The position numbers and the translations under genes were made by a program. From contig NZ_CP080545.1 in assembly GCF_019550795.1 (NCBI RefSeq), positions 5,499,501 through 5,563,500 of the forward strand: DNA of 64,000 nucleotides. Direction: 5' to 3'. Position 1 is the first letter of the stretch, and the number at the start of each line of letters is the position of its first letter. This stretch comes from Paenibacillus sp. sptzw28. Its GTDB lineage: Bacteria > Bacillota > Bacilli > Paenibacillales > Paenibacillaceae. The notes under the pieces are model-generated. The model was given only the letters and a program-made list of their open reading frames with translations, was not told where the DNA came from and did no database searches. This document shows positions 6,654 through 22,516 of the stretch, in pieces.

Positions 6654-8005
6654 GAGTCTGTAAAATAGATTGTGTAAACTCCTAAACCCATTACAATGGA
6701 AGTAGAAGAAAGGTTGGGGAGAACACATGGGATTATGGACGAAGCAGCAACTCCGGCAGTTCATCAAGGAGAATAAGTTGGTCTCTGCGCAGGATGCACA
6801 AAATGCGTTGAAAGAGCTGTTTGCCGAAACGCTGCAGGAGATGCTGGAAGCCGAGATGGATGAACATCTGGGCTATGAGAAGCACGATATGCAGAACAAA
6901 CAGACAACCAACAGTCGTAATGGCAAGAGTAAGAAAACCATCGTAAGTGAGTATGGTGATCAGGAGATCGCCGTTCCCCGTGACCGGCAAGGGGAATTTG
7001 AACCCCCTCGTGGTGAAGAAGCACCAGTCTAATGTGACCGGCATTGAAGACCAGATTATCGCCCTCTATGCCAAAGGTGTCAGCACGCGTGAGATTCAGG
7101 ATCACCTGCAAAATCTGTATGGGATCGAGGTCTCTCCCACCTTTATTTCTAACGTGACCAACAAGATCATTCCCTTGATTAAAGAATGGCAGAACCGGCC
7201 GCTCCAAGGCGTGTACGCGGTTGTCTTCCTGGATGCCATACACTTCAAGGTGAAGCAAGATGGCGCTATTGTAAACAAAGCCGCCTACATGGTAATCGGC
7301 ATCGACCTGGATGGCAACAAGGATGTACTGGGCATGTGGATTGGTGAGCATGAATCCGCCAAGTTCTGGCTTAATGTTCTAAACGACCTGAAGAACCGGG
7401 GCGTGCATGATATCCTTATCATCTGTGTCGATAATCTGACCGGTTTCAGCCAAGCCATTCAGGCTTGTTACGCGAAAACGGATATTCAGAAGTGTATCAT
7501 CCACCAGATCCGCAACTCCACCCGTTACGTCTCTTACAAGGATCTAAAGAAGGTAACAGCTGACCTGAAGCCGATTTACAAAGCAGCGACGGAAGAAATG
7601 GCACTCGTCGAACTCGATCGCTTCGAGGAAACCTGGGGGAATAAGTACCCGCTCATCATTCGCTCTTGGCGCAATAACTGGGATGAGCTGGCCACCTTCT
7701 TCAAGTACCCACCCGAAATCCGCAAGCTCATTTACACCACCAACATCATCGAGAGTTACCACCGCCAACTTCGCAAAGTGACGAAGGGAAAAAGCATCTT
7801 CCCGACGGATGAATCCTTGTTGAAAATGCTTTATCTGGCCACCATGGATGTTACGCGTAAATGGACAGGCCGCGTTCAAAACTGGGGTCAAATGCTGCTG
7901 CAGCTCTCCGTTTTCTATCCGGACCGCATCGGACAGCATCTGCGATAAAATTTCCCCCTCGGGGGAAAGCACGAAAAGAGTTTACACAAAAGATTTGACA
8001 GACCC
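6654..8005 (+). mobile_element. IS256-family insertion sequence, copy 1 (1352 bp)
   Basis: The element is bounded by imperfect 28-bp inverted repeats. The left begins GAGTCTGTAAAATAGATTGT and the right, read inward, begins GGGTCTGTCAAATCTTTTGT; both end in GTAAACTC. It is flanked by an 8-bp duplication (TGAATTAT). It is nearly identical to the copy at 16564-17914, which is 1 bp shorter, but its transposase is frameshifted. It could still be mobilised in trans by the intact copy because both ends are preserved. Confidence 0.95.
6727..7948 (+). pseudogene. IS256-family transposase, frameshifted
   Basis: The frame from ATG 6727 (GGGGAG upstream) matches the intact copy until GEFEP, then shifts. 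At about 7003-7008 this copy has an extra C (GAACCCCCTCG against GAACCCCTGG). The remaining frame to 7948 restores the mutator-type DDE transposase with VVFLDAIHFKV, CVDNLTGFSQAI, KCIIHQIRNS and the terminal IESYHRQLRKVTKGKSIF region. The protein would be 406 residues if repaired. The insertion separates the N-terminal DNA-binding part from the catalytic core, so no active enzyme is expected. Confidence 0.93.
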
Positions 8006-12138: not shown

Positions 12139-12888
12139 TTATCTAGCAAAAATTCTTTTGATTTTTTTCTTCAAGTTCTTTGAAATTCTACTTTTTCTTC
12201 TATTTTTCTTTATCAGCATTTCTTTAAACATCATCATTATCCCAAAAAAAGTGATTGACACAAGAACTAATAAAAGCGCATAAGTGATGTTCCACCATTG
12301 GGGCACCCATTCAAGAGGAACAATTAAACGTGCAATGGTAAAATAAAAAATAACCGCACTTATCCAAAATACAAATACTGACAAGTGGTAAACAATTTTA
12401 AATATACTTGATAGTACAACAAAGAAGGGATTGTTAAATGTATCACTGATAAATTGCTTGTGATCCTCATAAATAGTATCATGAGCATTCCAGTATTCAT
12501 CTTCAATCATAGGGTAAAGCCCATTTATTTTCTCTAACAGTTCCAGTTCATTGACTCTACTCTCCTCTTCTTTGTACTTAAAGTAAACTCTCCTAAGATT
12601 ATGAAAGTAGTCCAATATAAACGATGAAGCTATTAATCGAATTTTTGAATCCTTACCCGCATACTCCTGAACAAAAGTATCAATCAACTTTAATTTCTCG
12701 CTCTTCTCTTCAGTTGCTACAATAAGTGACAATTGCTCAAACATTGGGGAATAGATTTCGTTGTAGCTTGAACTTAACTCTTTTAGAAATGCTTCTCTTT
12801 TTTTGGAACGATGATTAAATTGATAACCTATATATGCCGTCACCAATGCAATAATGATGACTGACAAATCAACACCCCAAATTTTCAT
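12139..12888 (-). CDS. Membrane protein encoded at the end of the defence operon
   Basis: This 249-residue protein starts with a membrane helix (about residues 6-24: VDLSVIIIALVTAYIGYQF). A soluble helical, charged region follows, then two closely spaced membrane helices in the last third (VYHLSVFVFWISAVIFYFTI and ITYALLLVLVSITFFGIMMM). It ends in a very basic tail of Lys and Arg. ATG 12888 follows TTGGAG by six bases and lies two bases after the UvrD-like stop, so translation is coupled. I recognise no family. Membrane proteins at the end of nuclease/helicase defence operons can act as effectors, but nothing in the sequence proves that here. Confidence 0.72.
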   Translation of the reverse strand: MKIWGVDLSVIIIALVTAYIGYQFNHRSKKREAFLKELSSSYNEIYSPMFEQLSLIVATEEKSEKLKLIDTFVQEYAGKDSKIRLIASSFILDYFHNLRRVYFKYKEEESRVNELELLEKINGLYPMIEDEYWNAHDTIYEDHKQFISDTFNNPFFVVLSSIFKIVYHLSVFVFWISAVIFYFTIARLIVPLEWVPQWWNITYALLLVLVSITFFGIMMMFKEMLIKKNRRKSRISKNLKKKIKRIFAR

Positions 12889-12890
12889 TA

Positions 12891-14834
12891 TTAACTCCAA
12901 TCTGCCGCCGAATTTATTTCTGCAATGTGTCTAACATCAACATTTGCATTCTGTAATATTTGATATAGTGAAGAAATGTTTTGATTGAATTGAGGTCGCA
13001 GTTGAACATCCCCAAAACGCAGTATTTCTCTTGAAGCACTAAAGGTAAAAAAACATTGTTGCTTTGCTCTGGACAATACAACAAAGAATGCACACATATC
13101 GGCTGCTCGATGTGTTTGAAAACTCCAAAATGCATCGTCTTCTAACCCCAGAAATATTACAGTATCATATTCTAATCCCTTGCTCTTATGGATTGTCATT
13201 ATAGGTACACTAAACAACCCTACAAAATCAGATATAGCGTCACCCCAGTTTAAATATTTTAAATAAGCTGTCGTAAGTTTCCCAATTGTATTATCGATTA
13301 ATTCTGTGAAGAATACACCACTAGCATACTTAGGGTACAGACGAAAATACTTTTCCGTCTCTATAAAGGAAAAAATACCCTTAATAATTCTTTCAATCTT
13401 TTTTTTACAGTTATTTTCGTCATTGGCCACTTGAAGGAATTCAAGTCTTATCTGTTGGATAAGTTCATCTAGTTCCGATTCCTTTATTAATATTTTTGCA
13501 TGATCATGCTCTGGATCAAAACCTTGTATAAAAGACAAAATTTCTGATATTCGTACCCATGAATCGTGGTTCGTTCCTGTTGTAGCTAGTGCAAGAAAAT
13601 CAATAACTAGCTGTACGCATTCTTCTGCAAGCAAATCTTGATATTCTTTTTCAATTCGAGTCTGAACGCCGTGCTTTCCTAACTCCTCAATTACATTCCG
13701 GGCATAGATATGTTCTTGTTGCTTTACAATTATACAAATCTCTCGCGGAGTAACATTTTCTTGCCGGATTCTTTTTGCTATATTTGATGCTACATAAATA
13801 GCTTCGTCTAAATGAGTCTGAAAATCCCAAACCTCGCACATCCCCTCTAGATCACGATGTTTGCTGGAAACCGTGGCATCCGTAGCATTTTCATTTATAA
13901 TCTTTGCCATAACATTTTGAATTTCGATTAATCTTGGAGCAGACCTATGATTATGTGTTAACTCTATTTGAATGGCATTAAAATCATATTTAAACTGTTC
14001 AAAAGAATCGGAAAGTGCGCCGGCCCACCCCATGATTCTCTGTTTATCATCCCCTACACTCGATAATATTGTCGAAGATTCTAAGAAAATTGTTTTTACT
14101 AATTCATATTGAAGATAAGTCGTGTCTTGAAATTCATCCAAAAAAACGTGACTATATGTAACCTGAAGCGCCTTTTTGATCAATGGATTTAGTTTGAGCA
14201 AATAATCAGCAAGTTTTGAAATCATAGGAAACGTCAACGAACTTGGAAACCCATTCCTTCCATGAATCATAACATTCCAAAGTCTTACCAAAATCCACGT
14301 ATAGATATCTTCTCCATTATCATAGATTGGAAGAACGTCCTCGGTTAAGCGTCTGTATAAAAGATTAAAGTTAATCTCGTGCTGCCAATTAGGCTGATTA
14401 GGATGGCGCTCAATGATATAACCAGTAGCTATTTCTCGAATATCCCTATTTGAAATTACAATATTATAGTGTTTTGTTGGACGATAAGCATCTGGTAGAC
14501 CTAATCTAAAGTGATCTAATAATTGTTTAGAAAACGAATCAAACGTCCTTGATTCGAACCTTGCAGCTAGTTCTTTTCCGCACCGCAATTCTACCCTTTT
14601 TTTTAAGTTTTCCGCCGCGTCTTTCTTAAAACTAATAGCCAAGATTTTTTGCGGATTTGGGCATAAATTTGTTTGTAATAAAAAGCAAGCACGTTGTGCT
14701 AACAGCTCAGTTTTCCCCGCTCCTGGCCCTGCTAAAATAAGATTATTAAGTTCAGATTTAACTGCAATCTCTGCTGCTGGTTCTAGTGTAATTCCTTCAG
14801 ATGGACTCCAGTTATCTAGTTTAATATATGACAT
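12891..14834 (-). CDS. UvrD/PcrA-like superfamily 1 helicase (GajB-like)
   Basis: This 647-residue protein has a full set of SF1 motifs: Walker A GPGAGKTEL (about residue 38), the Ia-like SFKKDAAENL, Walker B FLDEFQD, VGDDKQRIMGWAG (motif III), NHRSAPRL (motif IV), MTIHKSKGLEYDTVIFLG (motif V) and LSRAKQQCFF (motif VI). It starts four bases after the OLD-family nuclease gene. OLD nuclease plus UvrD-like helicase is the defining pair of Gabija antiphage systems, in which the helicase senses or processes DNA ends. Known GajB proteins are nearer 500 residues, so this one is longer. A housekeeping PcrA is unlikely given the context. Confidence 0.88.
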   Translation of the reverse strand: MSYIKLDNWSPSEGITLEPAAEIAVKSELNNLILAGPGAGKTELLAQRACFLLQTNLCPNPQKILAISFKKDAAENLKKRVELRCGKELAARFESRTFDSFSKQLLDHFRLGLPDAYRPTKHYNIVISNRDIREIATGYIIERHPNQPNWQHEINFNLLYRRLTEDVLPIYDNGEDIYTWILVRLWNVMIHGRNGFPSSLTFPMISKLADYLLKLNPLIKKALQVTYSHVFLDEFQDTTYLQYELVKTIFLESSTILSSVGDDKQRIMGWAGALSDSFEQFKYDFNAIQIELTHNHRSAPRLIEIQNVMAKIINENATDATVSSKHRDLEGMCEVWDFQTHLDEAIYVASNIAKRIRQENVTPREICIIVKQQEHIYARNVIEELGKHGVQTRIEKEYQDLLAEECVQLVIDFLALATTGTNHDSWVRISEILSFIQGFDPEHDHAKILIKESELDELIQQIRLEFLQVANDENNCKKKIERIIKGIFSFIETEKYFRLYPKYASGVFFTELIDNTIGKLTTAYLKYLNWGDAISDFVGLFSVPIMTIHKSKGLEYDTVIFLGLEDDAFWSFQTHRAADMCAFFVVLSRAKQQCFFTFSASREILRFGDVQLRPQFNQNISSLYQILQNANVDVRHIAEINSAADWS

Positions 14835-14838
14835 GGTC

Positions 14839-16563
14839 TTAAACTTCCTTTTGGAGTATTTCTTTTACTCTCGTAACTAACCTACAAAAATTATCAGGAA
14901 TGAACATTATTAAATCATCATCGTCCAATTCTATCAGAGCTTCAATGTGTGTGCTCGGTTTACTTCGCCCAAGAAATAGCGTATTGTACCAAACCATAAG
15001 TTCATGTTGTTCTTCTGTATATGTATAACCTGTTGCCTTCTCATTCTTTAATGCCGCAATAATGCCGCCTTTAATTTTATCTGCATATTTATCTGGATGC
15101 TGGGTACGATCAGGAATGCTGGGCCCTCTAGGTACTGTTTCCTTATAGGCATAAGGAAATGTTTCGAGCATAAGAAAATCTAAGTCTAAAGGTGCTGAGT
15201 AGAAGACATTATATTTATCTTCCATCAGTCTATGAAGCCATAATTTATTCATCGAATTTTCTACCCAATCAGGAGTCATTGAATATTCATCCATTTCTTC
15301 TATTTGGTCATCAGAAAGGATTTCTTCTCTTTGTCCATACCAAACTTTTAATAATTCTTCGCGGCTGCGACCGTTGAGTAATAACTGTTTAATTGCATAC
15401 TTAATTCTGCTCCAACCGCCACCGCCTCGTTCACGATCTAAATCTAATAAGGTGATATGTGGAATACTCAGCTCATTAAGTAATTTCCACATATGGTTAA
15501 CATGTCTCCCCCCCAGAGGGACAATCGATATTCCATTATCATCAGGATGTATTCCATTAGCTGTAAGTATTCTGGGAATTACGATCTCTTCTGAATCCCC
15601 CTCACCCAAAATTACCAATCTTGAAAAATAAATTTCAGGGTATGCCCTTACAGCTTCCTTAATGTATGTATAAGCATCTGATGTCTTACTAGGCAAAATC
15701 ACTTTCTTTACTATTGTTGTACAACTCATCTGATCAATTCTCAAGTGAGTTAATTTTTCTGGATCGATCCGTTTAATAATTGAAGCGCTGTGTGAAGTTA
15801 AAACAACCTGAGCATTTGACTTATTAGAAATATCCCTTAGGTTCTCCATTATTCGTCCCAGAAGATGAGGAGATATGTGATTCTCCGGCTCTTCTACTGC
15901 GAGAACAGTAAGAGAAGCACCCGATTTCCCAGTAACTTTTATTTCTGCTTCAAGTAAGGACGACACCAACGAAAGATAAAATAGAGATCGAAGGCCATCC
16001 CCCAGTTTTTCTACGCTATATTCGCCTAGATCATGTGTTGGAGAAAAAGACACTTCAATTTTCTTAAGAATAGAAGCCAATGTAGAACTGCTAAATTGTA
16101 ATTTTGCATCTTGATAACGAGCATCCTTGTGGTATTTTTTCCATTCCTCTCCGATGACACTTCTTATTTGCGAAACCCCATCAATGCCGTCAAATAATTC
16201 ATTTACAGGTTCCATTTTTGTTTTAATGGAGTCATTTATGTCTTCCGGCCAAGAAATATTATTCAAAATCCTCCAAAGTATTGTGCCCGATGCATTTCTT
16301 AGTTGCGCAGATGGCTCTCTTACTGCAGGAACATATATGACTTGTATTGTTGATCGTTGATGAGGAGTAACTGGAATTAGATCCTCTTCTGTTTCATCAA
16401 TACCTTCAGCTACAGTAACAAAATATAACTTCTGTTCGATTTCGCCTTCAGGAGTATTATCAGCAGTCCACTTTGCAATTAATCTAACACGTAGATAAGG
16501 TGCTTCAGCAGTAGCACGAACAACGAGTTGATTTATAAATGGAGGAATACTAGCTCGGCTCAA
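14839..16563 (-). pseudogene. OLD-family ATPase/TOPRIM nuclease (GajA-like), C-terminal part separated by IS256
   Basis: This 571-codon section carries the second half of the ABC-type ATPase, with VEEPENHISPHLL (signature and Walker B region) and LTSHSASIIKRI (switch His). The TOPRIM nuclease domain follows: VILGEGDSEEIVIPRIL with its metal-binding Glu, then TLLDLDRERGGGGW with the DxD pair. All nuclease residues I can identify are intact. It lacks its own start because IS256 copy 2 sits upstream. Removing the element and one target duplication joins it in frame to the section at 17915-18210, giving about 670 residues. The UvrD-like gene follows by four bases. Confidence 0.88.
16556..16563. 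repeat. Target site duplication, left copy (IS256 copy 2)
   Basis: CGGCTCAA at 16556-16563 recurs at 17915-17922, flanking the second IS256 copy. It lies inside the OLD-family coding sequence. Confidence 0.92.
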
Positions 16564-17914
16564 GGGTCTGTCAAATCTTTTGTGTAAACTCTTTTCGTGC
16601 TTTCCCCCGAGGGGGAAATTTTATCGCAGATGCTGTCCGATGCGGTCCGGATAGAAAACGGAGAGCTGCAGCAGCATTTGACCCCAGTTTTGAACGCGGC
16701 CTGTCCATTTACGCGTAACATCCATGGTGGCCAGATAAAGCATTTTCAACAAGGATTCATCCGTCGGGAAGATGCTTTTTCCCTTCGTCACTTTGCGAAG
16801 TTGGCGGTGGTAACTCTCGATGATGTTGGTGGTGTAAATGAGCTTGCGGATTTCGGGTGGGTACTTGAAGAAGGTGGCCAGCTCATCCCAGTTATTGCGC
16901 CAAGAGCGAATGATGAGCGGGTACTTATTCCCCCAGGTTTCCTCGAAGCGATCGAGTTCGACGAGTGCCATTTCTTCCGTCGCTGCTTTGTAAATCGGCT
17001 TCAGGTCAGCTGTTACCTTCTTCAGATCCTTGTAAGAGACGTAACGGGTGGAGTTGCGGATCTGGTGGATGATACACTTCTGAATATCCGTTTTCGCGTA
17101 ACAAGCCTGAATGGCTTGGCTGAAGCCGGTCAGATTATCGACACAGATGATAAGGATATCATGCACGCCCCGGTTCTTCAGGTCGTTTAGAACATTAAGC
17201 CAGAACTTGGCGGATTCATGCTCACCAATCCACATGCCCAGTACATCCTTGTTGCCATCCAGGTCGATGCCGATTACCATGTAGGCGGCTTTATTGACAA
17301 TGGCACCATCTTGCTTCACCTTGAAGTGTATGGCATCCAGGAAGACAACCGCGTACACGCCTTGGAGCGGCCGGTTCTGCCATTCTTTAATCAAGGGAAT
17401 GATCTTGTTGGTCACGTTAGAAATAAAGGTGGGAGAGACCTCAATCCCATACAGATTTTGCAGATGATCCTGAATCTCACGCGTGCTGACACCTTTGGCA
17501 TAAAGGGCAATAATCTGATCTTCAATGCCGGTCACATTAGACTGGTGCTTCTTCACCACCAGGGGTTCAAATTCCCCTTGCCGGTCACGGGGAACGGCGA
17601 TCTCCTGATCACCGTACTCGCTTACGATGGTTTTCTTACTCTTGCCATTACGACTGTTGGTCGTCTGCTTGTTCTGCATGTCGTGCTTCTCATAGCCCAG
17701 ATGTTCATCCATCTCGGCTTCCAGCATCTCCTGCAGCGTTTCGGCAAACAGCTCTTTCAACGCATTCTGTGCATCCTGCGCCGAGACCAATTTATTCTCC
17801 TTGATGAACTGCCGGAGTTGCTGTTTCGTCCATAATCCCATGTGTTCTCCCCAACCTTTCTTCTACTTCCATTGTAATAGGTTTAGGAGTTTACACAATC
17901 TATTTTACAGACTC
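16564..17914 (-). mobile_element. IS256-family insertion sequence, copy 2 (1351 bp), inside the OLD nuclease gene
   Basis: The ends match those of the copy at 6654-8005 (GGGTCTGTC at the left, GACTC at the right edge in plus-strand reading) and are flanked by the 8-bp duplication CGGCTCAA. The element is intact, transcribed on the minus strand like the gene it splits, and encodes a full-length transposase. Precise loss of the element with one duplication would restore the host gene. Confidence 0.95.
16621..17841 (-). CDS. IS256-family transposase, intact
   Basis: This 406-residue mutator/IS256-type DDE transposase has an N-terminal DNA-binding part (MGLWTKQQLRQFIKENKL) and EMLEAEMDEHLGYEK. 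The catalytic core shows VVFLDAIHFKV (first Asp), CVDNLTGFSQAI (second Asp) and KCIIHQIRNS, with the third acidic residue near the C-terminal TTNIIESYHRQLRK. It starts at ATG 17841 with GGGGAG upstream and matches the frameshifted copy at 6727-7948 apart from one indel. It could mobilise both copies in this window. Confidence 0.96.
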   Translation of the reverse strand: MGLWTKQQLRQFIKENKLVSAQDAQNALKELFAETLQEMLEAEMDEHLGYEKHDMQNKQTTNSRNGKSKKTIVSEYGDQEIAVPRDRQGEFEPLVVKKHQSNVTGIEDQIIALYAKGVSTREIQDHLQNLYGIEVSPTFISNVTNKIIPLIKEWQNRPLQGVYAVVFLDAIHFKVKQDGAIVNKAAYMVIGIDLDGNKDVLGMWIGEHESAKFWLNVLNDLKNRGVHDILIICVDNLTGFSQAIQACYAKTDIQKCIIHQIRNSTRYVSYKDLKKVTADLKPIYKAATEEMALVELDRFEETWGNKYPLIIRSWRNNWDELATFFKYPPEIRKLIYTTNIIESYHRQLRKVTKGKSIFPTDESLLKMLYLATMDVTRKWTGRVQNWGQMLLQLSVFYPDRIGQHLR

Positions 17915-17922
17915 CGGCTCAA
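17915..17922. repeat. Target site duplication, right copy (IS256 copy 2)
   Basis: CGGCTCAA directly follows the element and matches 16556-16563. Confidence 0.92.
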
Positions 17923-18210
17923 AGCAACCTGATTAGTGTCCACTAACTCTGGAAAGTCAATCCGGGCTTCAATTGAAAGTTGTAGTTCTTTTATGGTTTC
18001 TACTTTGACTTGTTTAGGGATATGAAAATCTGACTTTTCTAAGGTTCGTTCGTGCGAAGTCACACCAAAAAGTTTAACTAAACCATGTATTAAGGCAGTT
18101 TTGCCTGCGGAGTTTTCTCCAACGAAACCGGAAAGCTTATTCAATGTTATTGTTGTACCCTCATTACCAAAACTTCTGAAGTTTATCAAATGCAGCTTTG
18201 AAATTTGCAT
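17915..18210 (-). pseudogene. OLD-family nuclease (GajA-like), N-terminal part cut by IS256
   Basis: ATG 18210, with AAGGGA nine bases upstream, opens the start of an OLD-family ATPase: ISKLHLINFRSFGN (typical first strand) and Walker A GENSAGKTAL (about residues 31-40). The frame is interrupted after 99 residues (VALSR) by IS256 copy 2, where it would gain two foreign residues and stop. It rejoins in frame with the section ending at 14839 if the element is removed. It is the second gene of a minus-strand operon, 111 bp after the large helicase. As it stands the Gabija-like nuclease should be inactive. Confidence 0.88.
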
Positions 18211-18321: not shown

Positions 18322-21300
18322 TTATTTGTTTGAAATTACCCCCAACTCAATCCCAGAAGTTTCTTTCAAGAAATTCTCAGTAACGCCCAGTAATTGCAAG
18401 ATATCCTCAGAAGGATTAGCTTTGGATAAGCTCGGTTGAACTATATATATCTTAAATTGCATAGGCATCTTCTTCTTTGCAAAGCCTAAAACTCTCTCCA
18501 GATCATCCATAGTACCTTTTTCAAGTCTTGAACTTTCGACACCAATTTTCTTTTTTGGTTCGCGTCTTAACAAATGCGTCATAAATTCCTGCGCTTCTTT
18601 TTGCTTCCACACGCACGACTTTTGAGCCTGTCCACATACTTCATAAAAATTATCAATGCGATTACTGACTACTCCTCCTTTGGCAAACTTCAAGTGATAA
18701 AGTTCAACATAAATCACATCGTCTTGAACCTTAATTGTAATAATGTCTGCAATTTCCCCACTATAATCGTCATCATATATAATTTCATAGTCCTTATTTT
18801 TCAAATAATCTATCACCTGATACTGAATAGAGTCCGCTATTTTAGGTGTTACTCCTTGTGACTCTTTGCTTAAATCGGCCCTTGACCAATCAAAAGTAAT
18901 GATTTTCTCAGAAGGGTATAATCCTATTCTTTTCTTCAATTTAATATAGTCATTTCCAGTAAGTGATGATCCGTCTGCGAACCAAATCGTTGGAGGATAC
19001 TCATCAAAAAAATCGATTACGCTTCTTCTCTTTGACCCATAAATCACTTCTACTTTTTCTTTGCTAACTTGATGTATTTTATAATTAGGAAATTTTACAT
19101 CAGTATTATCCAAAATATCTTCGAATAAATGAAGTTTAAAAATCACATTGCCATCCTCAGTATTTAAAGAGAAAAGTAAATCTCCATCTTGTGTTGGTTT
19201 AAACAAACTAATCTCAGATGTTGATAAATTATATTCAGTACCGTTGATTATGAAGGCGTATTTAATTTCATTGTATTGCAAGATATCCGAATCTAATTCA
19301 ATCCAGACTGGAAATAAATATGGTCTATCTATTATTTTTTCAGGGATCAATGTTTCTTTCAGAATAATATTCGGATCAAGCTCGTTATTCACCAATTTCT
19401 CCCCAACATTCATGCACCATTCTTTAAACTCTAATAAGTCTCCTTCTTTCTTCGTCCATATTCTTCCCTTATATGAGCATCCAATGTTAGTCTTGTTCCC
19501 ATTTTCGTATCCAGCACCTACAACAAATGCCTTTTGGCCATTTTGTCTTTCAGCTAAGGAAAGTGCCTCGCCAACATCGCTGCCTACACTCATTCTAAAT
19601 CTGATATCCCTGCCTAGAAAAAGTTTTAGACCAACGTTTTGAAGTCTAATCCGATTAATCCCATGTAAAGCTTTAAATACATTCATGTGGTTAATCAGTT
19701 GTACTTCTTTCCCAATTACTGCTTTTGCCAGGTCTTTGTACAAACTGCCGTTATCAGAACTGTTAATAAATAAAAGACTATTCTTTTCATCCCAAAACAT
19801 TACAATGATATCCCAATTTAAATTATAGATATCTTTATGATTAATCCAATCAGGATATAGGCTCTTTGCAAATACAAAGATAGCAATATTTTCATTCCTA
19901 TTAACGTCAAAAAATTTATACTCAATTTGATTGTATGCTTGAATTCCTTTGTGAAAATTATTTGGGTCCCATGTGTGCCTGTGACCCTTATAAACCACTG
20001 TACTGAGCTTAGGACGTATGTTTTGAAAAGGGATCTTTGAACTATTCAACTTAGTGAATCCATCCATTAGCTCCCTATATTTAATTTCATTATCTATTTT
20101 CAAATGACTTATATCAGACAATATCTTATTCCAATCGGCATCCCTAGCATATAACTCCACAAGTTCTTCTGTAACATTTAAGTCAGCGATATTTGCAATA
20201 AATGAGGCCTTCCCTAATTGTTCATCATATTTAGTTCTTGTAAACCTACCAGTAAACTGCAACGTTACTGGAAGACTTTTTCTAATATCATGAAAAGCAG
20301 CTATTTTGAGTTCAGGCAAATCAAAGCCTTCTCCCAACATATCTACACAAACAATAATTTTATGTTCTCTATTAATGATGGACTGATAGATTTCTCTTTT
20401 ATTCGGAATCGTAGAATGAATAAGAACTGGATTATGCTTCGTGAAGTTTTTATATATTTCAAAAATTAAACTCGCTTTCTCTTTAGTCGCACACCTAGCC
20501 ATTAATATGTGTGGAAGACCCCTTTCATGATCCTCCTCTAATCTGTGAACGGCTGCTTGTGCAATTGTTAAGTCAGCTCTAGTTGAGTCATAGTCTCTTA
20601 CGGGTATAAACTCAATCTCTTTAAAATATCCGTCTTCTTGGGCTTTTAAAAGTGGAAAGTTAAAGATAATCTTTCCGTCCAATCTTTTCCCATCATTCCT
20701 AAATGGAGTAGCTGTGAAAAAAACTATCTTTTCATTATTAAAGCTTAAACGAAATTTTTCCCACGATTGCGCTTTTACATGGTGCGCCTCATCTATAAAT
20801 ACATGTGAAATTAGTTTAGACATTTCTGCTTGCTGTTCTTTAGAACTGTCAGCTAATAAAGGCATTGTGGATACAACTACATTGCATTTCTCAAAAAAAT
20901 GACGCAACTCTTCAACTGTTTTAAAATGCTCTTTAACAACCCCAACAATCGGGAAGAGAGCAGACTCGCCTACTACTCCAAATCTTTTCAACAACCCTAA
21001 GGATAGAAATTTCTCTGATATTTGCTCACGTAACGAATCACTAGGTACAGTAATTAGTAATTTGCTACACCTATAAGCGACTAGAGCTGAGAGCATTGTT
21101 TCTGTTTTTCCAGTCCCAGTAGGCATTACAACCGTTGCAATATTCAACGGAAGTTGAAAATGTCCCATAATCATATGCAAGGCACCTAGTTGCGGTTTTC
21201 TTAAACCATATATGTTTTTACTGATATCTTCTAATTTATAATCAAATTGATCGTTCCACGATTCTATAATTTCAGTTGTCTCATATGCCTCTGAACTTCG

Positions 21301-21588
21301 CGGATGTTTTAACCATTTATCTAATTTTAATGATCCATCATTTATATTAGTTTCAGTAGGTAGCTGCTTTGATAAGATGACGTAATCATAAGGAGTGATG
21401 TTATTTGAGGATTTGTTAGTAATACAATACCTTTGTTCTGAGTCTTCAAGTACAATCATATTTGAATCAATAGAAAATAATCTCGGTTGTATTTTCTTTG
21501 GCGAAACAAGAATTTGTTTAATGATATTCTTTTTCCCTTTCTCCTTCAGAAGAACTCGCTCTAGAGCAGGTAATGTAAGTTCTATCAA
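18322..21588 (-). CDS. Large SF2 DEAD/DEAH helicase with a possible C-terminal nuclease fold
   Basis: The protein of about 1088 residues has restriction-helicase-like SF2 motifs: Walker A MPTGTGKTETML, DEAH box FIDEAHHVKA, motif III FFTATPFRNDG, motif V DMLGEGFDLPELK and motif VI QFTGRFTRT. The helicase core spans roughly residues 150-480. The long C-terminal part has no obvious homologue, but ADIITIKVQDDVIYVELYHLK shows an Asp then Glu...Lys spacing like a PD-(D/E)XK nuclease core; this is inference. TTG 21588 is chosen because AAAGGAG lies nine bases upstream; GTG 21636 is possible but lacks a ribosome site. It heads the operon with the OLD and UvrD-like genes and is not part of canonical Gabija. 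Confidence 0.82.
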   Translation of the reverse strand: MIELTLPALERVLLKEKGKKNIIKQILVSPKKIQPRLFSIDSNMIVLEDSEQRYCITNKSSNNITPYDYVILSKQLPTETNINDGSLKLDKWLKHPRSSEAYETTEIIESWNDQFDYKLEDISKNIYGLRKPQLGALHMIMGHFQLPLNIATVVMPTGTGKTETMLSALVAYRCSKLLITVPSDSLREQISEKFLSLGLLKRFGVVGESALFPIVGVVKEHFKTVEELRHFFEKCNVVVSTMPLLADSSKEQQAEMSKLISHVFIDEAHHVKAQSWEKFRLSFNNEKIVFFTATPFRNDGKRLDGKIIFNFPLLKAQEDGYFKEIEFIPVRDYDSTRADLTIAQAAVHRLEEDHERGLPHILMARCATKEKASLIFEIYKNFTKHNPVLIHSTIPNKREIYQSIINREHKIIVCVDMLGEGFDLPELKIAAFHDIRKSLPVTLQFTGRFTRTKYDEQLGKASFIANIADLNVTEELVELYARDADWNKILSDISHLKIDNEIKYRELMDGFTKLNSSKIPFQNIRPKLSTVVYKGHRHTWDPNNFHKGIQAYNQIEYKFFDVNRNENIAIFVFAKSLYPDWINHKDIYNLNWDIIVMFWDEKNSLLFINSSDNGSLYKDLAKAVIGKEVQLINHMNVFKALHGINRIRLQNVGLKLFLGRDIRFRMSVGSDVGEALSLAERQNGQKAFVVGAGYENGNKTNIGCSYKGRIWTKKEGDLLEFKEWCMNVGEKLVNNELDPNIILKETLIPEKIIDRPYLFPVWIELDSDILQYNEIKYAFIINGTEYNLSTSEISLFKPTQDGDLLFSLNTEDGNVIFKLHLFEDILDNTDVKFPNYKIHQVSKEKVEVIYGSKRRSVIDFFDEYPPTIWFADGSSLTGNDYIKLKKRIGLYPSEKIITFDWSRADLSKESQGVTPKIADSIQYQVIDYLKNKDYEIIYDDDYSGEIADIITIKVQDDVIYVELYHLKFAKGGVVSNRIDNFYEVCGQAQKSCVWKQKEAQEFMTHLLRREPKKKIGVESSRLEKGTMDDLERVLGFAKKKMPMQFKIYIVQPSLSKANPSEDILQLLGVTENFLKETSGIELGVISNK

Positions 21589-21801
21589 ATTTTCCAACTC
21601 CTTTTGAGAAGATTGCGGAATTTTATCCAAGCACACTAATATACTATATTAACTACATTTTCGACATCTTCCGCCATTTCCCTTTTTTGGAACCAATAAA
21701 ACAAGCCTATTACACTATTGAAATTCGAATAATCAAGAAAGAGGTTTTCATATTATACCCCTGATACCTATACAGATAGGTAGTCCTCGCGAGAGGCAAC
21801 G

Positions 21802-21870: not shown

Positions 21871-22516
21871 ATGAACAATCGCAATGAGGAGTTGAAAAAA
21901 CTGATTTCAGAATGTTTACGCGAACGTCCCGACAGCTATCCTATCCAGCAACTACTCAACCAGTTTCCGACTACAGCACAACTAATAGACGTAACTAAGC
22001 AGCAACTCATAAGCATAAAAGGAATCGGCATGGGTAAAGCTCGTCAGTTGACGGCCCTGTTAAGGCTTGCTAAGAACCTGACCATTCCAACTTATGAGCA
22101 AACAACAATACGGAGCCCTAAAGACGCATTTGACTTACTTGAACCTGAACTCAGGTATGCAACGAAAGAACATTTCATTTGCTTATTTTTGAATACAATG
22201 AACAGAGTGATCTTTAAAGAAATCATCTCGATAGGCTCTCTCAACGCTGCAATCGTTCATCCAAGGGAAGTATTTCGCGCGGCGATTAAACGTTGCAGTG
22301 CCTCGCTCATATGCGCACATAACCATCCGAGCGGAGACCCTAATCCCTCTTACAAACCGGCTGGCGAGAGCAGGCGAAATTGTGGGCATAGAAGTACTAG
22401 ATCACCTCATAATCGGAGGAAACACCTTCGTTAGCCTAAAAGAAAAAGGCTTTTTAAAGTTGCCTTCGTTGTATGCGTCTTTTTCGGGAATATATATAGC
22501 CATAAAATCTGGATGA
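21871..22516 (+). pseudogene. radC: RadC/JAB-domain protein, frameshifted
   Basis: ATG 21871 (AGGAGG eight bases upstream) starts a RadC-like protein with a helix-hairpin-helix (LISIKGIGMGKARQL), the conserved EHFICLFLNTMNRV strand, REVFRAAI and the JAMM metal site start [11 protein letters not shown]. After that residue the frame changes. The expected continuation, [20 protein letters not shown] with [15 protein letters not shown], is found in another frame. The residues normally linking PS to LTNRLA (including the acidic JAMM position) are missing, so a deletion of about 10-14 bases is the likely cause. RadC-like genes commonly sit in integrated elements and defence islands. Confidence 0.82.

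What the first reader, a model, noticed from the sequence alone, without database searches (positions are those of the whole stretch)
12139..18210. Gabija-like nuclease gene split in frame by an IS256 copy, possibly reversible
The minus strand encodes an OLD ATPase/TOPRIM nuclease followed four bases later by a UvrD-like helicase, the defining Gabija pair. IS256 copy 2 interrupts the nuclease after residue 99. Removing the element and one copy of the duplication CGGCTCAA rejoins the gene without a frame change (VALSR then ASIPPF), giving about 670 residues with Walker A, signature and TOPRIM acidic residues intact. The system is therefore probably off but not decayed, and precise excision could turn it back on.
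Basis: partly seen in the sequence, partly recalled or inferred. Interest (0 to 1): 0.72.

Follow-up and report, generated by a model that had tools for sequence, protein, structure and literature searches.

The report
Phage-defence gene broken by transposon
A bacterium's two-gene anti-phage system, Gabija, has been cut by a recently inserted IS256-type transposon, an ordinary kind of gene loss that could in principle reverse, and an unstudied gene for a predicted membrane protein follows the pair.

Summary
A 1,351-bp IS256-family element (16564-17914) with an exact 8-bp duplication splits gajA of a Gabija pair. The two pieces match GajA profile positions 1-91 and 93-656, so nothing is lost at the junction; gajB is intact. 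Three of six uninterrupted relatives examined carry the 8-bp target once, in the same frame. None of 18 other gajA places in 394 family genomes shows this insertion.

The insertion looks recent: the element is 100% identical to another copy in this 6.1-Mb genome, and no further decay was found. The genome has 7 copies with a full open transposase; each of 21 congeners has 0-2 matches.

Reversal is possible by precedent (rare, transposase-independent excision of IS256), but nothing here shows it. In-frame rejoining follows automatically from precise excision and is no extra evidence.

Two additions. The element's end carries a TTGACA box that reads towards the rest of gajA and gajB. A third gene, for a predicted membrane protein, follows gajB here and in 8 of 23 relative loci examined (decayed in one), and also occurs away from Gabija.

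Verdict: an ordinary, well-supported insertion-sequence inactivation of a known system; the third gene deserves follow-up.

The parts
17905..18210 (-). gajA N-piece (101 aa, residues 1-99 plus two codons of the element): P-loop part of the ABC ATPase domain
   Evidence: PADLOC GajA PDLC00090 positions 1-91, 107 bits; 89% identical to P0002 over 100 residues
17915..17922 (.). 8-bp target duplication, copy on the N-piece side
16564..17914 (-). IS256-family element, 1,351 bp, inserted inside codon 99 of gajA
16621..17841 (-). transposase, 406 aa, intact
   Evidence: NF033543 446 bits, cut-off 150; Transposase_mut PF00872
16556..16563 (.). 8-bp target duplication, copy on the C-piece side
16547..16574 (-). 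promoter-like site: TTGACA in the element's end, 16 bases, TAGTAT in gajA
   Evidence: 5 sites of this kind in the region against a mean of 3.4 (sd 1.8) in shuffles, so not significant by number
14839..16563 (-). gajA C-piece (574 aa): rest of the ATPase domain and TOPRIM domain
   Evidence: PDLC00090 positions 93-656 of 659, 692 bits; OLD-like_TOPRIM PF20469
12891..14834 (-). gajB, 647 aa, UvrD-like helicase, intact
   Evidence: PADLOC GajB PDLC00103, 729 bits over residues 1-633; UvrD-helicase PF00580
12139..12888 (-). third gene, 249 aa, predicted membrane protein, two bases after the gajB stop
   Evidence: 35 homologues labelled PF27134; after gajB in 8 of 23 relative loci; hydropathy

Best explanation
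This is a probably acquired Gabija anti-phage locus of a Paenibacillaceae bacterium, followed by a third gene found after gajB only in near relatives. It was recently knocked out when an IS256-family element that has multiplied in this genome inserted inside codon 99 of gajA. The insertion parts the ATP-binding loop from the rest of the ATPase domain and from the TOPRIM nuclease domain, so no working GajA is expected and the system should be off. gajB and the third gene are intact and may still be transcribed, perhaps from the element's outward-reading end. The lesion is potentially reversible because the duplication is exact, but reversal would be a rare accident of precise excision rather than a programmed switch. 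Shown: anatomy, identity of the parts, identity to another copy of the element, absence of further decay. Inferred: acquisition, loss of defence, expression from the element, reversibility.
For: GajA and GajB profile matches covering both gajA pieces and nearly all of gajB; exact duplication; element 100% identical to a second genomic copy and 98.3-99.6% to six others; 7 full open transposase copies here, 0-2 matches in each of 21 congeners; 16 of 18 other gajA places in the family read as one open frame; three of six relatives carry the 8-bp target once at codons 97-99; dN/dS 0.06-0.12 for gajA pieces and gajB against the three nearest loci with DNA; deletion of either gajA or gajB abolishes defence in B. 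cereus Gabija (passage of PMC10822852); GC 34-37% in the locus outside the element and no match in 21 congeners.
Against: No phage assay, expression data or reads. Identity to another copy bounds the age of the element copy only if gene conversion between copies is ignored. dN/dS reports selection before the insertion and several comparisons have saturated dS. An unusual split GajA (N-piece plus a C-piece made from a downstream start) is not excluded.
Confidence: 0.85

Rival explanations
1. The element acts as a reversible on/off switch for Gabija: cells with and without it coexist, and pressure from phages or from self-damage shifts the balance.
For: Exact duplication and otherwise sound genes; IS256 insertion with reversible phenotype is described for S. 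epidermidis genes (passages of PMC11178275); Gabija toxicity in some recB/recC mutants is reported (passages of a preprint, PMC12407980), so loss could pay.
Against: The same source calls clean excision rare and apparently independent of transposition. Element copies lie at 7 other places examined, 6 of them with their own duplications, which fits general spread. No relative carries the same insertion.
Confidence: 0.07
2. The locus is still partly active: the element's end drives the C-piece of gajA and gajB, and these, with or without the N-piece, keep some function.
For: TTGACA-16-TAGTAT at the junction reading into gajA and gajB; gajB and the third gene intact.
Against: The C-piece lacks the P-loop, which lies in the N-piece; the number of promoter-like sites in the region is within chance (5 against 3.4); no ribosome site is evident before the mechanical TTG start (sequence).
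Confidence: 0.06
3. The insertion is an assembly artefact.
For: Near-identical copies elsewhere could be misjoined; the identical copy at 5631569-5632919 has no duplication.
Against: Single-contig genome; exact 8-bp duplication at both ends of this copy, and both sides belong to one gene, which a misjoin would hardly make.
Confidence: 0.02

Closest known systems
Gabija (GajA class 2 OLD nuclease with GajB UvrD/PcrA/Rep-like helicase)
   Same: Domain make-up, gene order and spacing, profile matches of both proteins
   Different: gajA is interrupted; a third gene follows gajB; GajA relatives are about 670 aa against 578 in the B. cereus VD045 protein (passage of PMC10822852)
IS256-family insertion inactivation with rare precise excision in Staphylococcus epidermidis (passages of PMC11178275)
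   Same: Element family, 8-bp duplication, interruption of an otherwise sound gene
   Different: The target is an anti-phage gene in another bacterial family; reversal has not been observed here
Lamassu (LmuABC) locus L079 and Hachiman-like locus L078, which carry relatives of the third gene nearby
   Same: A third-gene relative (65-66% identical) nearby on the same strand
   Different: No Gabija genes in the fetched stretch of L079, only a gajB remnant in L078

Membership tests
Gabija | GajA-type OLD protein: ABC ATPase plus TOPRIM domain | tested here: met
   Met by the two pieces taken apart: AAA_15 in both, OLD-like_TOPRIM in the C-piece; PDLC00090 positions 1-91 and 93-656
Gabija | GajB-type UvrD-like helicase next to GajA | tested here: met
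   PDLC00103 729 bits, four bases after gajA
Gabija | P-loop and TOPRIM acidic motifs conserved | tested here: met
   GENSAGKT in the N-piece, GEGDSEE and DLDRE in the C-piece, aligned with 21 relatives; which residues are catalytic is recalled, not tested
Gabija | GajA made as one uninterrupted protein | tested here: not met
   Element at 16564-17914
Gabija | Anti-phage activity | not testable with these tools
   No assay
IS256 family element | Family transposase over cut-off, terminal inverted repeats, 8-bp target duplication | tested here: met
   446 bits against a cut-off of 150; repeats and duplication
IS256 phase-variable gene | Observed precise excision restoring the gene | not testable with these tools
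   No reads or sister strains held

The most novel reading that the evidence does not exclude
The third gene is a real component of a Paenibacillaceae subtype of Gabija: a small membrane protein (membrane stretches at both ends around a conserved middle) that senses infection or carries out part of the response, shared as a module with other defence systems such as Lamassu. Its intact state beside an interrupted gajA would make this strain a natural test of whether it acts on its own.
Probability: 0.3. Interest if true: 0.5.

Novelty: new member of a known kind. Interest (0 to 1): 0.25.

Why it matters
It is a clean example of an insertion sequence silencing an anti-phage system without other decay, which bears on how quickly defence is gained and lost. 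If the third gene is a true part of the system, Gabija would have a membrane-linked form that I did not find in titles and abstracts listed by my searches.

Tried and rejected
Composite transposon made by the two inverted element copies of the window: rejected, each has its own 8-bp duplication. Insertion shared by relatives: not seen among 18 other gajA places or in 23 relative loci searched with the transposase. The 1,104-aa helicase at 18322-21636 as part of the system: not supported, no match at E <= 1e-6 in those 23 loci; one weak match of about 60 residues in L016. Third gene as exclusive to Gabija: rejected. A PDB search with the third-gene alignment gave three chains matched over 40 residues at E 0.006-0.4, taken as meaningless. 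Paper searches for insertion-sequence-inactivated or reversible defence systems listed nothing that I recognised as this case from titles and starts of abstracts; I did not open those papers. Third protein search, second fold job, viral-contig scans and the remaining caps were left unused.

Full report
WHAT IS THERE. On the minus strand, 18210-14839 holds a gajA gene in two pieces with an IS256-family element between them, followed after four bases by gajB (14834-12891) and, two bases after the gajB stop, by a third gene (12888-12139). The element is 16564-17914, 1,351 bp, with imperfect inverted repeats and an exact 8-bp duplication on both sides. Its 406-aa transposase scores 446 bits to the NCBIfam IS256 model, cut-off 150. 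The nearest protein and DNA relatives with names are Paenibacillus, and one of the named contigs (520,592 bases) has the length of a contig in a genome of the same family as this one, so the host is taken as Paenibacillaceae; it is not named.

IDENTITY. The N-piece matches PADLOC GajA PDLC00090 at positions 1-91 and the C-piece at 93-656 of 659 (107 and 692 bits). The C-piece carries an OLD-like TOPRIM domain, and its best PDB matches by sequence are GajA chains (E about 6e-8). gajB matches GajB PDLC00103 with 729 bits over residues 1-633 of 647; in the PDB it matches UvrD, PcrA and Rep best and GajB more weakly (E 2.6e-6).

JUNCTION. The N-piece has 96 codons before the duplication and the C-piece 574 codons counted from the duplication, 670 in all, the length of the nearest uninterrupted relative P0002, which is 96% identical over the C-piece and 89% over the first 100 residues. 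Of six relatives read at this place, three (L060, L010, L011) carry TTGAGCCG once at codons 97-99, the duplicated target on the coding strand; three (L061, L063, L068) differ there. Precise excision always restores the reading frame, so the frame is no evidence for a switch; it shows only that no indel has arisen beside the element.

RECENCY AND DECAY. The element is 100% identical to the copy at genome position 5631569-5632919 and 98.3-99.6% identical to six other copies; of these 8 distinct copies 7 have an exact 8-bp duplication, and the one identical to ours has none. With the transposase as query the genome has 10 matches at E <= 1e-100, 7 of them full-length and open; of 21 congeners 15 have none and 6 have one or two. 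dN/dS is 0.06-0.10 for the gajA pieces and 0.09-0.12 for gajB against L060, L010 and L011, with dS already 0.6-1.3; of eight loci compared, the more distant ones have saturated or near-saturated dS in several rows and carry little weight. These ratios tell of selection before the insertion. No stop or frameshift was found within the gajA pieces, gajB or the third gene.

RELATIVES. With P0002 as query, 18 of 394 family genomes, this one included, have a match at E <= 1e-100, 19 places in all. Of the 18 places outside this genome 16 read as one open frame; one (G117) begins at a contig edge with a stop in the match, and one (G136) is frameshifted, which may be real or a sequencing error. None of 23 relative loci contains this transposase at E <= 1e-6. 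None of the 21 other genomes of the genus has a match to the C-piece at E <= 1e-20. GC is 34-37% at 12-16 and 18-22 kb, 46% in the bin that holds the element, 46-50% at 0-8 kb, 36% at 8-10 kb, 43% at 10-12 kb, 39% at 22-24 kb and 43-55% at 24-40 kb. Acquisition from elsewhere is likely but inferred; the island's borders were not fixed, since homologues of two flanking genes in the genus were not examined for neighbours.

MECHANISM. Deleting either gajA or gajB abolishes B. cereus Gabija immunity (passage of PMC10822852). The insertion parts the P-loop from the remaining ATPase and nuclease parts, so loss of defence is expected (inferred). On the minus strand the element's end carries TTGACA 16 bases before TAGTAT in gajA; 5 such sites were found in the region against a mean of 3.4 in shuffles, so transcription from the element is only a suggestion. 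A review says IS256 can be excised leaving an intact gene, that this is rare and appears independent of transposition (passage of PMC11178275; the primary paper it cites is not held). A preprint reports Gabija toxicity in some recB and recC mutants (passages of PMC12407980), so a benefit from inactivation is conceivable.

THIRD GENE. A 249-aa protein is encoded directly after gajB. Hydropathy of this protein gives membrane-like stretches at about 3-21, 155-189 and 203-221; of four family members scanned, three give all of these and the most distant gives only the first and last. It follows gajB in 8 of 23 relative loci (L010, L060-L066; decayed in L063), is absent from 14, and one (L067) ends too soon to tell. 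The 23 left out L012, L013, L017 and L018, which are the same places as loci kept. All 8 carriers are among the 12 loci whose GajA C-piece is 79-88% identical to this one; of the other four, three lack it and one cannot be judged; none of the 11 loci with more distant GajA has it. Thirty-five homologues, all labelled PF27134, were found; the Pfam copy scanned here gave no match, so I do not know the family's name. Among 394 family genomes 20 have a match at E <= 1e-8: 8 at Gabija, this one included, and 12 elsewhere, of which I fetched nine loci. In L078 the gene, with one stop inside, follows a gajB remnant, and Hachiman-like genes lie upstream; in L079 it lies 540 bases downstream of a Lamassu-like LmuABC set on the same strand. 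It looks like a defence-associated module rather than a fixed part of Gabija. Its dN/dS is 0.13-0.19 against L010 and L060, less constrained than gajA. A fold prediction did not finish.

LITERATURE. Searches for Gabija with insertion sequences, with a third gene and with Paenibacillus, and for reversible or inactivated defence systems listed no paper whose title or start of abstract describes this case. I saw passages of five papers and read none in full. Most subscription journals are not held.

VERDICT. It is an ordinary, apparently recent insertion-sequence inactivation; reversal is possible and unproven. The third gene is the part most worth following.

Noticed in passing
12139-12888: Third gene for a predicted membrane protein (family PF27134) after gajB; relatives also lie near a Lamassu-like set (L079) and Hachiman-like genes (L078).
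   Followed up: partly
18322-21636: 1,104-aa protein with ResIII/DEAD helicase domains upstream of gajA on the same strand; only weak matches in PADLOC; not next to gajA in the 23 relative loci.
   Followed up: partly
21871-22434: RadC-like gene matching only positions 1-82 of 121 of the RadC domain, apparently truncated.
   Followed up: no
6654-8005: Second copy of the element in the window, inverted relative to the first, with its own duplication TGAATTAT and a transposase broken into two frames.
   Followed up: partly
L087:4570-5920 (genome 5631569-5632919): Element copy 100% identical to the one in gajA but without a target duplication, which hints at a rearrangement or adjacent deletion.
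   Followed up: no
L089 (genome 5614558-5614683): A second, weaker OLD-like TOPRIM match (27.6 bits, cut-off 23.2) in an open frame of 364 aa in the same genome.
   Followed up: no
L076:9200-9700: gajA of another family genome (G136) is frameshifted downstream of the P-loop part; real or a sequencing error.
   Followed up: no
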